Positions 43,493-44,846 of a stretch of DNA of 64,000 nucleotides are shown one piece after another. Location: positions 1 to 64,000 of the forward strand of contig CANPGB010000004.1 in the NCBI GenBank assembly GCA_947573485.1, written 5' to 3'. Made by a program: the position numbers and the translations under genes. Position 1 is the first letter of the stretch, and every line of letters begins with the position of its first letter. The notes beneath the pieces were generated by a model, which did no database searches, had not been told where the DNA came from, and saw only the letters and a program-made list of their open reading frames with translations. The stretch comes from an uncultured Porphyromonadaceae bacterium. Its GTDB lineage: Bacteria; Bacteroidota; Bacteroidia; Bacteroidales; Muribaculaceae.

Positions 43493-43583
43493 GAATTTAC
43501 CACCACTATCCAAATTTACCACCTTTCAAGTGGTAAATTCCGCAAAATAAAGGGTGCCGGCTAAGTCAGTCGGCACCCTATTT
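43493..43583. repeat. 91-bp direct repeat, downstream copy
   Basis: Identical over all 91 bases to 44730-44820. It contains AATTTACCAC at 43494 and 43513, its inverse GTGGTAAATT at 43530, and the hairpin GGGTGCCG/CGGCACCC (43552-43578). It lies between the convergent 43089 gene and fic and serves as terminator for both. Confidence 0.97.
43552..43583. terminator. Bidirectional terminator in the downstream repeat
   Basis: 8-bp stem GGGTGCCG/CGGCACCC with an 11-base loop, A-rich on one side (AAAATAA) and followed by TATTT on the other. Suits termination of the 43089 gene (+) and fic (-). Confidence 0.8.
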
Positions 43584-43602
43584 ATATATTCGTTATGACC
43601 GG

Positions 43603-44691
43603 TTATCGCTTGAATCCTTTGGCATAGGAAACAGTGTTTTTGGCATTCACTATCCAGCCCCTTTTCTTCCCTGCAGGTCGTGAAATATACTGTTTTTGAG
43701 CCAGAGAGGCAATATGCTTCTGTATCGCCGATCTGTTTATGCCAAGGGAGGTAGCCATATTGTCAAGGGTAATGTCAGGCTCTGCCTGGAGCAGCGACAA
43801 TATCTTACCCGGTGTCTCGGTCGAAAATCTTATTATCTCGCCTTCGTACCACCACGACATGTTCCTATCAGTGGATACCAAAGAAATGTAATCAGTGACA
43901 TCACTCATGAGAATTTTCTTCATATGCTCTACGAAAGGCTTGATGTCGGCGTAAGAGGCATGGGCGCCGTCAGAGGGTATGAGGCCAACATTGGCATCGG
44001 CCTGCGCGAGGGCGGTAAGGTACGATGCCTTGTTTTTGGTCTTCACAACCATCATAGGCCAATTATGCTGCTTGAGAATATAGTTTACAAGCAGGCGGGC
44101 TATGCGCCCGTTGCCGTCCTCAAACGGGTGAATCCTGATATAGCGGTAGTGGAATATCGCGGCCAGTTCAATAGGGCTGTATTCTTCAGCTGCCGCCGCC
44201 TCATTATACCACTTTACCAAATCATACATCAGTGCCGGAGTTTCTTCGGGGCTGGCATAATAGAACATGCCGCCTCCGGGGAGCTTTACTGAATTGGGGC
44301 GAGTTTTATAAATTCCTGCATGAACCGTGTAGCCCGAAAGGACTCCCGATGGCGATTGCACGGGCACTTCATAATCTTCACGCAACATTACTTGGTGGAG
44401 CTGCCTTATGAACGCTTCGGTCAACGGTTGGCCGCTCAAAGCCTCTTCAAGCATTATATTCAAACAGAGATTATGTGCCTTCATCTCCTCAAAATCTCTC
44501 ATGGGGGCATTGCCTGTCGCTTGTCCGAACAGAAGGAGCACCTCCGTCTGGCCATATGTCAGGGTATTGCCCTCAATATGGTTGCTGTTGTAGTTGAAGT
44601 CAAGCATAAACTTGTTCTGCAGCCGCAGTGTGTCTGTCTCACTCAAGGGCTGCAGTGCCTGCCATGCTTTTATTGTATCGGTCAAATCCAT
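43603..44691 (-). CDS. Fic-family AMP-transferase with winged-helix domain
   Basis: 362 residues. The Fic motif HPFEDGNGRIAR (188-199) is complete, so nucleotidyl transfer (usually AMPylation) is predicted. An inhibitory motif SNHIEG (36-41, S/TxxxE-G/N) precedes it, making this a self-inhibited class II Fic. Residues ~290-345 form a winged helix (LDNMATSLGINRSAIQKHIA). That domain and the operator-like repeats at its promoter suggest autoregulation. Flanked by perfect 91-bp direct repeats. Target unknown. Confidence 0.92.
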   Translation of the reverse strand: MDLTDTIKAWQALQPLSETDTLRLQNKFMLDFNYNSNHIEGNTLTYGQTEVLLLFGQATGNAPMRDFEEMKAHNLCLNIMLEEALSGQPLTEAFIRQLHQVMLREDYEVPVQSPSGVLSGYTVHAGIYKTRPNSVKLPGGGMFYYASPEETPALMYDLVKWYNEAAAAEEYSPIELAAIFHYRYIRIHPFEDGNGRIARLLVNYILKQHNWPMMVVKTKNKASYLTALAQADANVGLIPSDGAHASYADIKPFVEHMKKILMSDVTDYISLVSTDRNMSWWYEGEIIRFSTETPGKILSLLQAEPDITLDNMATSLGINRSAIQKHIASLAQKQYISRPAGKKRGWIVNAKNTVSYAKGFKR

Positions 44692-44719
44692 TTTATCGGG
44701 AGCTTGTGCGTTGTGCCCG

Positions 44720-44751
44720 CAAAGTTAATGAATTTACCACCACTATCCAAA
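44720..44751 (-). promoter_or_regulatory. fic promoter with overlapping operator-like repeats
   Basis: On the - strand TTTG (44748-44751), 20 bases, TAACTTTG (44720-44727). One GTGGTAAATT site (44731-44740) lies between the boxes, a second (44750-44759) overlaps the -33 box, and an inverted one (44767-44776) lies just upstream. A protein bound there would block polymerase. Confidence 0.78.
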
Positions 44752-44820
44752 TTTACCACCTTTCAAGTGGTAAATTCCGCAAAATAAAGGGTGCCGGCTA
44801 AGTCAGTCGGCACCCTATTT
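44730..44820. repeat. 91-bp direct repeat, upstream copy
   Basis: Identical to 43493-43583. Here the same sequence supplies the fic -33 box and operators, and its hairpin (44789-44815) ends the long SusCD operon reading from the right. Confidence 0.97.
44789..44820 (-). terminator. Terminator of the SusCD-type operon
   Basis: Same 8-bp hairpin in the upstream repeat copy, about 30 bases below the GH3 stop. On the - strand it is followed by TTTATTTT. Confidence 0.82.
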
Positions 44821-44846
44821 GTTTTGGATTCAAGGTTTACCTTGAT

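What the first reader, a model, noticed from the sequence alone, without database searches (positions are those of the whole stretch)
43493..44820. fic gene bracketed by identical 91-bp repeats that carry its operators, promoter element and terminators
Seen directly: 43493-43583 and 44730-44820 are identical over 91 bases. Each has three GTGGTAAATT-type sites (two direct, one inverted) and one hairpin. In the upstream copy the sites sit between and over the -33/-7 boxes of fic. The downstream copy has the sites but no -7 box. Fic carries a winged helix. Inference: Fic represses its own promoter, the second site set could support looping or act as a decoy, and recombination between the copies would delete 1,237 bp and remove the toxin-like AMPylase cleanly.
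Basis: partly seen in the sequence, partly recalled or inferred. Interest (0 to 1): 0.75.

Follow-up and report, generated by a model that had tools for sequence, protein, structure and literature searches.

The report
Self-repressing fic gene between twin operators
A gut bacterium's gene for a protein-modifying enzyme (Fic) sits between two identical 91-letter copies of what looks like its own off-switch plus terminator; relatives show the same switch design, and often the switch left behind with the gene gone.

Summary
The repeats are real: 91/91 identical, the only two copies found in the 2.88-Mb assembly. Each holds a hairpin and three GTGGTAAATT half-sites. In the fic-upstream copy (44730-44820) these overlie a Bacteroidetes-type promoter.

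Relatives support self-repression. Fic homologues whose recognition helix reads xxSAxQ carry GTGGT-type sites just upstream of the gene (25 of 26). A sister class (xx[TA]A[IV]QK) carries another palindrome there, GGTT-N-AACC (26 of 26; none with GTGGT). Where the three-site set is present its outer half-sites lie 26-27 bp apart; the autorepressed Fic toxin CccR has a 26-bp spacer. So the operator design is a variant of something known.

The unusual part is the second set. Full sets follow fic in 5 of 25 class-A homologues, three direct and two inverted, so excision cannot be its general purpose. Of 49 sets in 36 of 397 family genomes, 23 lack fic (sorted by hand). Several share left-flank homology with fic-bearing loci, mostly ending in or just after a set. 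No pair keeps both flanks, so clean excision is plausible but unshown. Binding, looping and decoy roles are untested.

The parts
43603..44691 (-). fic: 362-aa Fic AMPylase (inhibitory-type motif SNHIEGN, active site HPFEDGNGRIAR) with C-terminal winged helix (helices 293-303, 309-316, 320-332)
   Evidence: ORF; Pfam Fic 6.7e-21 and HTH_24 6.4e-07; AlphaFold2 model from 9 sequences, mean pLDDT 75. Meaning of the motifs and class II: recalled
44730..44820 (-). Upstream copy of the 91-bp repeat: hairpin plus three half-sites
44731..44740 (-). Third (direct) half-site GTGGTAAATT, between -33 and -7
44750..44759 (-). Middle half-site, overlapping the -33-like box
44767..44776 (+). Outer inverted half-site; 7 nt to the middle site, 26 nt to the third
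44748..44751 (-). -33-like TTTG
   Evidence: sequence, (Bacteroidetes promoter consensus recalled)
44720..44727 (-). -7-like TAACTTTG, 2 nt outside the repeat; TAnnTTTG follows the set in 14 of 17 homologues with a proximal set
44788..44816 (.). Hairpin of the upstream copy, between the stop codon of the GH3 gene and the fic operator
43493..43583 (-). Downstream copy of the 91-bp repeat, same orientation, no -7 box
43494..43539 (-). Three half-sites of the downstream copy (43494-43503 -, 43513-43522 -, 43530-43539 +)
43551..43579 (.). Hairpin of the downstream copy, between the fic stop codon and the second operator; terminator-like on the plus strand, so it could also serve the convergent gene

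Best explanation
fic encodes an AMPylase that represses its own transcription. Its C-terminal winged helix binds GTGGTA half-sites arranged as a palindrome plus a third direct site over the promoter (inferred from the match between helix class and operator, from conserved geometry and from the CccR precedent). The 91-bp unit is a hairpin terminator plus this operator. The downstream copy ends the fic transcript and adds a second operator; the upstream copy ends the neighbouring GH3 transcript and carries the working operator (inferred). Exact identity means the two were equalised recently, by duplication or gene conversion (inferred). A second set beside fic recurs in other species in either orientation, so it probably has a regulatory use, such as cooperative binding or looping (inferred, weak). 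As a side effect, sets are short homologies at which fic is lost or swapped, leaving solitary sets in relatives (breakpoints shown on one side; mechanism inferred).
For: Class A helix (xxSAxQ) goes with GTGGT sites in 25 of 26, class B with GGTT-N-AACC in 26 of 26 and GTGGT in 0 of 26; with the same tests, random 110-nt windows of these loci match in 70 and 24 of 3727 (strict palindrome alone: 23 of 26, 25 of 26, control 8 and 21 of 3727). Helix and operator labels need 5 and 6 changes on a tree built without the HTH. Of 27 class-A-like loci, 19 match the three-site pattern (32 matches): inner gap 7-8 in 31, outer gap 26-27 in 31, the 32nd being an overlapping second reading. TAnnTTTG follows the set in 14 of 17, at one same offset in 11. 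Downstream full set in 5 of 25 class A and 0 of 25 class B. 49 set matches in 397 family genomes against 1 for the reversed control. Left-flank homology ending in or just after a set in L055/L174, L007/L177, L080/L162, L073/L170. CccR autorepression through N26-spaced inverted repeats (PMC9755527).
Against: No binding data. The operator patterns and helix classes were written after looking at the sequences. Only 5 independent pairs exist on the tree, 2 on well-supported branches, so the sign test cannot reach 0.05. L006 misses the test in one change; 8 of 27 class-A-like loci have GTGGT sites in another arrangement, not the three-site set. 6 of 7 class-D and 4 of 10 class-C homologues show no recognised palindrome. 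L233 and L234 carry a set after a Fic of neither class (helix SENAVLKQ), in front of a gene that looks like hsdS; they were fetched later and are not in the 69-row table. 15 genomes hold a set without a fic homologue at 1e-60, so another protein could bind it. No pair shows both flanks of fic preserved around one set.
Confidence: 0.72

Rival explanations
1. Excision module: the direct copies are kept because recombination between them removes a costly AMPylase and leaves one clean set.
For: Direct, identical, 1237 nt apart. Fic-less single sets exist in relatives. Homology breaks in or just after a set in several pairs. G002 keeps fic codons 1-34 beside a set.
Against: L070 and L091 have inverted downstream sets, where recombination would invert, not delete. 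20 of 25 class-A homologues have no full downstream set. No downstream flank of a fic locus matches the right flank of a fic-less set beyond the set itself (one 30-nt match, inside the set). The closest GH3 relative, G032:C41, shows neither fic nor set in the 276 bp left before its contig end.
Confidence: 0.2
2. Joint of a mobile unit: sets are the ends at which fic and other small defence-like genes are inserted and exchanged, by host recombination or an unseen recombinase.
For: Among the 23 loci listed, class-A fic mostly lies beside different neighbours (judged by eye; L010/L011 and L055/L107 share theirs). Sets also border an ATPase_2 gene and a Gp49/HTH_3 pair; L167 and L169 share about 1 kb at 97% on the left. 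Two class-B fic genes, L073 and L080, lie behind a class-A set. A Segatella copri plasmid has a recombinase gene directly before its fic, though no set there.
Against: No recombinase among the five window proteins scanned around fic; no target duplication seen; the set doubles as promoter operator in a fixed place before fic, which needs no mobility to explain.
Confidence: 0.2
3. The sets are bound by another regulator, not by Fic, which merely sits in its regulon.
For: 23 of 49 sets have no fic beside them; G137 has an own-type set before another gene and only weak Fic matches elsewhere (best 1e-15).
Against: Operator letters switch with Fic's own recognition-helix class; own genome has the palindrome nowhere else.
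Confidence: 0.12
4. Assembly artefact: the second copy is a false join in a 49-contig assembly.
For: Fragmented assembly; sets lie near contig ends in three relatives (L161, L162, L179).
Against: 91 nt is shorter than usual reads (general knowledge); both flanks are coherent genes; downstream sets of differing sequence exist in other species.
Confidence: 0.03

Closest known systems
CccR, Fic toxin and transcription factor of a type VI secretion system (Nat Commun 2022, PMC9755527)
   Same: Fic domain plus C-terminal HTH; represses its own promoter; 10-bp inverted half-sites 26 bp apart near the promoter boxes (section 10 part 1 read); here 10-bp half-sites with outer gap 26-27
   Different: Different letters; here a third, middle half-site and a second complete set after the gene; secretion not examined here; Proteobacterium (recalled)
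BT_2513 Fic, Bacteroides thetaiotaomicron (PDB 3cuc)
   Same: Closest solved relative by sequence and fold: 4.2e-89, 50-51% identity
   Different: The sequence match covers residues 7-269 only and the chain has 291 residues, so it says nothing on the winged helix or operator
SoFic anti-phage AMPylases
   Same: PADLOC SoFic profile 8.7e-31 over residues 25-350, second to PDC-S04 at 5.8e-35; single-gene Fic
   Different: NCBIfam SoFic 31.8 bits against a cut-off of 550: not a member of that equivalog. A 47-aa antitoxin is reported downstream of E. coli Sofic (abstract and passages of PMC12249575); here I listed no ORF under 60 aa, so none was looked for
phd-doc toxin-antitoxin autoregulation
   Same: Product represses its own promoter
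   Different: Enzyme and repressor are one protein here (parallel as drawn in PMC2686095, passages)

Membership tests
Fic AMPylases (Pfam PF02661) | Fic domain above the curated cut-off with HxFx(D/E)GNGRxxR | tested here: met
   75.4 bits against 24; HPFEDGNGRIAR read from the translation; motif recalled
Class II Fic (N-terminal inhibitory helix) | (S/T)xxxE(G/N) motif before the Fic core | tested here: met
   SNHIEGN at residues 36-42; S36, E40, G41, N42 invariant in 9 sequences; motif recalled, activity not tested
Self-repressing Fic with HTH (CccR-like) | C-terminal HTH | tested here: met
   HTH_24 29.3 bits, cut-off 21.9; model helices
Self-repressing Fic with HTH (CccR-like) | Inverted half-sites over the promoter, 26-bp spacer | tested here: met
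Self-repressing Fic with HTH (CccR-like) | Protein binds operator and lowers its own expression | not testable with these tools
   needs gel shift and reporter
SoFic equivalog | NCBIfam cut-off | tested here: not met
   31.8 of 550 bits
Excisable cassette | Relative with one set and both flanks of a fic locus | tested here: inconclusive
   Left flanks match in L055/L174, L007/L177, L080/L162 and others; right flanks do not, and three fic-less loci end near the set

The most novel reading that the evidence does not exclude
A self-repressor's operator doubles as the joint of gene turnover: fic moves, swaps and vanishes as a set-fic-set unit by recombination at its own operators, leaving solitary sets much as solo LTRs mark lost retroelements, and the remaining sets could take part in new insertions.
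Probability: 0.2. Interest if true: 0.8.

Novelty: new variant of a known kind. Interest (0 to 1): 0.55.

Why it matters
It suggests that self-repression is common among winged-helix Fic AMPylases of these bacteria, gives a readable link between recognition helix and operator that can be tested at once, and offers operator scars as a tracer of how single defence-like genes come and go in gut bacteria. If sets really act as recombination joints, regulation and gene turnover would be coupled in one short sequence.

Tried and rejected
MITE or dispersed repeat: rejected, only two copies found in the genome. Phage or plasmid origin: the viral-contig scan found nothing; best plasmid hit a Segatella copri plasmid at 51.5% with no GTGGTA cluster beside its fic; no phage record covers 80% of the query. 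The distant match L004 shares only the hairpin part. Empty-site search at the GH3 gene: one clear relative, G032:C41, shows neither fic nor set in the 276 bp before its contig ends. Upstream 280 nt of the G137 neighbour gene in 12 of its 13 genus relatives (L156 was left out, its contig starts there): no set seen by eye, and no homologous empty site recognised. A first script for this found nothing but L145. Outside the family: 8 of 393 order genomes, two of them the own genome and G022; G423 carries sets beside a fic split over two contigs, L233/L234 between fic and an hsdS-like gene, L236 beside the ATPase gene, L231 152 bp or less from a contig end without fic, and L237 looks like chance. 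Literature; no paper found that holds Fic, AMPylation, direct repeats and mobile together (68), Fic protein with Bacteroidales and operator (69), Fic family protein with Bacteroides and winged helix (52), or toxin, operator, deletion between direct repeats and autoregulat (70); most subscription papers are not held. PMC10628234 was seen only as a listing.

Full report
Observation. The two 91-bp copies are identical and bracket fic. They are the only matches in the assembly. The own genome has the palindrome TTTACCAC-N5-9-GTGGTAAA nowhere else, nor the hairpin core even with three mismatches. fic is on the minus strand, so 44730-44820 is the upstream copy. Read from the sequence, the third half-site lies between a -33-like TTTG and a -7-like TAACTTTG, and the middle half-site overlaps the -33 box; the -7 box lies just outside the repeat.

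The protein. fic encodes 362 aa: Fic domain 75 bits, HTH_24 29 bits. The nearest solved relative is BT_2513. A model built from 9 sequences gives a recognition helix at 320-332; the residues NRSAIQK (319-325) stand at its start. The model's mean confidence is 75, with weak stretches at 38-64 and 351-362 among others.

Relatives. 70 of 397 family genomes have a homologue at E 1e-60 or better; I fetched flanks for those places and also used the loci. 85 loci were oriented, 79 with a start codon aligned, 69 kept for the helix comparison. The close homologues carry a palindrome (17 nt start to start) and a third site 19 nt on, which begins 35-49 nt before the start codon; 6 class-A homologues have a second, distal set further up. 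Of 27 class-A-like loci 19 match the three-site pattern, with 32 matches: inner gap 7-8 in 31, outer gap 26-27 in 31 (the pattern itself allows 5-9 and 21-30). The other 8 loci have GTGGT sites in other arrangements. A TAnnTTTG box follows the set in 14 of 17 homologues with a proximal set, 11 at one offset.

Helix and operator. With classes and patterns written after reading the sequences, class A (xxSAxQ) has GTGGT sites within 110 nt upstream in 25 of 26, class B (xx[TA]A[IV]QK) has a GGTT/AACC palindrome in 26 of 26 and GTGGT in none. A third class shows other palindromes in 6 of 10 (2 GAACGTTC, 3 AGGTATA, 1 GGTT), the rest 1 of 7. With equal tests, random 110-nt windows from the same loci match in 70 (GTGGT) and 24 (GGTT) of 3727; with the strict palindrome alone the counts are 23 of 26 and 25 of 26 against 8 and 21 of 3727. 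On a tree built without the HTH the labels change 5 (helix) and 6 (operator) times; 5 independent pairs exist, 2 on starred branches, and those 2 agree. This is good but not conclusive evidence that Fic binds its own operator: near-copies inflate the raw counts.

Second sets. Within 150 nt after the stop codon a full set is found in 5 of 25 class-A and 0 of 25 class-B homologues: own, L007 and L054 direct, L070 and L091 inverted. L007 and L054, from two genera, share about 25 nt around their downstream palindrome but not the genes beyond (by eye). Among these five, only in our window are the two copies identical, and that identity includes the hairpin. Inverted cases argue against excision as the general purpose.

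Sets without fic. The pattern TACCAC-N7-8-GTGGTR-N13-GTGGTR gives 49 matches in 36 of 397 family genomes, its reversed control one. Sorted by hand against the fic places: 21 upstream of class-A fic (two of these before the gapped fic of G199, helix SRSAIQKQ), 3 downstream, 2 upstream of class-B fic, 23 without fic (21 loci, 19 genomes; 15 of these genomes have no homologue at 1e-60). Of 70 homologue-bearing genomes 21 hold a set, of 327 others 15. Three of the fic-less loci stop within 200 bp of a contig end on the fic side (L161, L162, L179). In the 20 stretches searched, two hold fic remnants: L165 codons 1-34 (nearest a class-A fic) and L172 residues 335-355 (nearest a class-B fic). Left-flank homology links fic-less L174 to fic-bearing L055 (885 bp, 79%), the second set of L177 to L007 (672 bp, 86%), L162 to L080 (477 bp, 91%), L161 (1281 bp, 73%) and L170 (167 bp, 85%) to L073, and, more weakly and ending before the set, the first set of L177 to L055 (829 bp, 65%). 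Homology stops at the right end of the distal set in L007/L177, inside the proximal palindrome in L055/L174, and a few bases after the set in L080/L162 and L073/L170. In L053/L160 only the operator region is alike, and L161 ends 17 bp after its set. L073 and L080 are class B, so there the set stands before a fic of the other class. No downstream flank of a fic locus matches the right flank of a fic-less set beyond the set itself (one 30-nt match; same strand, E 1e-6). So sets mark breakpoints on one side; clean excision is not shown.

Known parallels. Fic-HTH fusions were predicted to regulate fic (PMC2686095, passages). CccR represses its own promoter through two 10-bp inverted repeats 26 bp apart (PMC9755527, passages and section 10 part 1). 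The outer half-sites here have the same spacer, which may be coincidence but fits a dimer with widely spaced HTHs. Hence: works like CccR, with extra sites and a second set; a new variant of a known kind.

Verdict. Self-repression likely (about 0.8); the second set as a functional operator about 0.5; loss or exchange of fic at sets about 0.5 as a process in the family, about 0.2 as the reason for the repeats.

Noticed in passing
L233 and L234 (G667, G733): A fic gene is followed by a set that lies just before a gene that looks like hsdS (type I restriction specificity; named from recall), so the operator may also control a restriction gene.
   Followed up: partly
L163 and L164 (G265:C3), L236 (G682), L176 (G043): An ATPase_2 gene with a set beside it occurs twice, 3 kb identical, in one genome and at 96% over 1.7 kb in a genome of another family; L176 shares only the region around the set. 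Hairpins containing TTGGCTATAAGTGGG or similar stand next to the set.
   Followed up: partly
L167 and L169 (G285, G272): A Gp49-like/HTH_3 pair (toxin-antitoxin-like; scanned in L167) lies next to a set; about 1 kb is 97% identical between the two, then the sequences part soon after the set.
   Followed up: partly
L177 (G022:C27) 4011 and 8788: Two sets 4.8 kb apart with similar sequence continuing past each set, another direct repeat that brackets genes.
   Followed up: no
L068, L073, L080, L014, L099, L104, L013, L094 upstream of fic: Other Fic classes carry their own palindromes (GGTTGTA, AGGTATA, GAACGTTC) before the gene.
   Followed up: partly
44826-44841: Near-perfect palindromic stretch around TCAAGGTTTACCTTGA between the GH3 stop codon and the upstream repeat.
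   Followed up: no
43603-44691: The window's Fic has a long end branch (0.87) in the tree; it may be evolving fast or lack close sampled kin.
   Followed up: no
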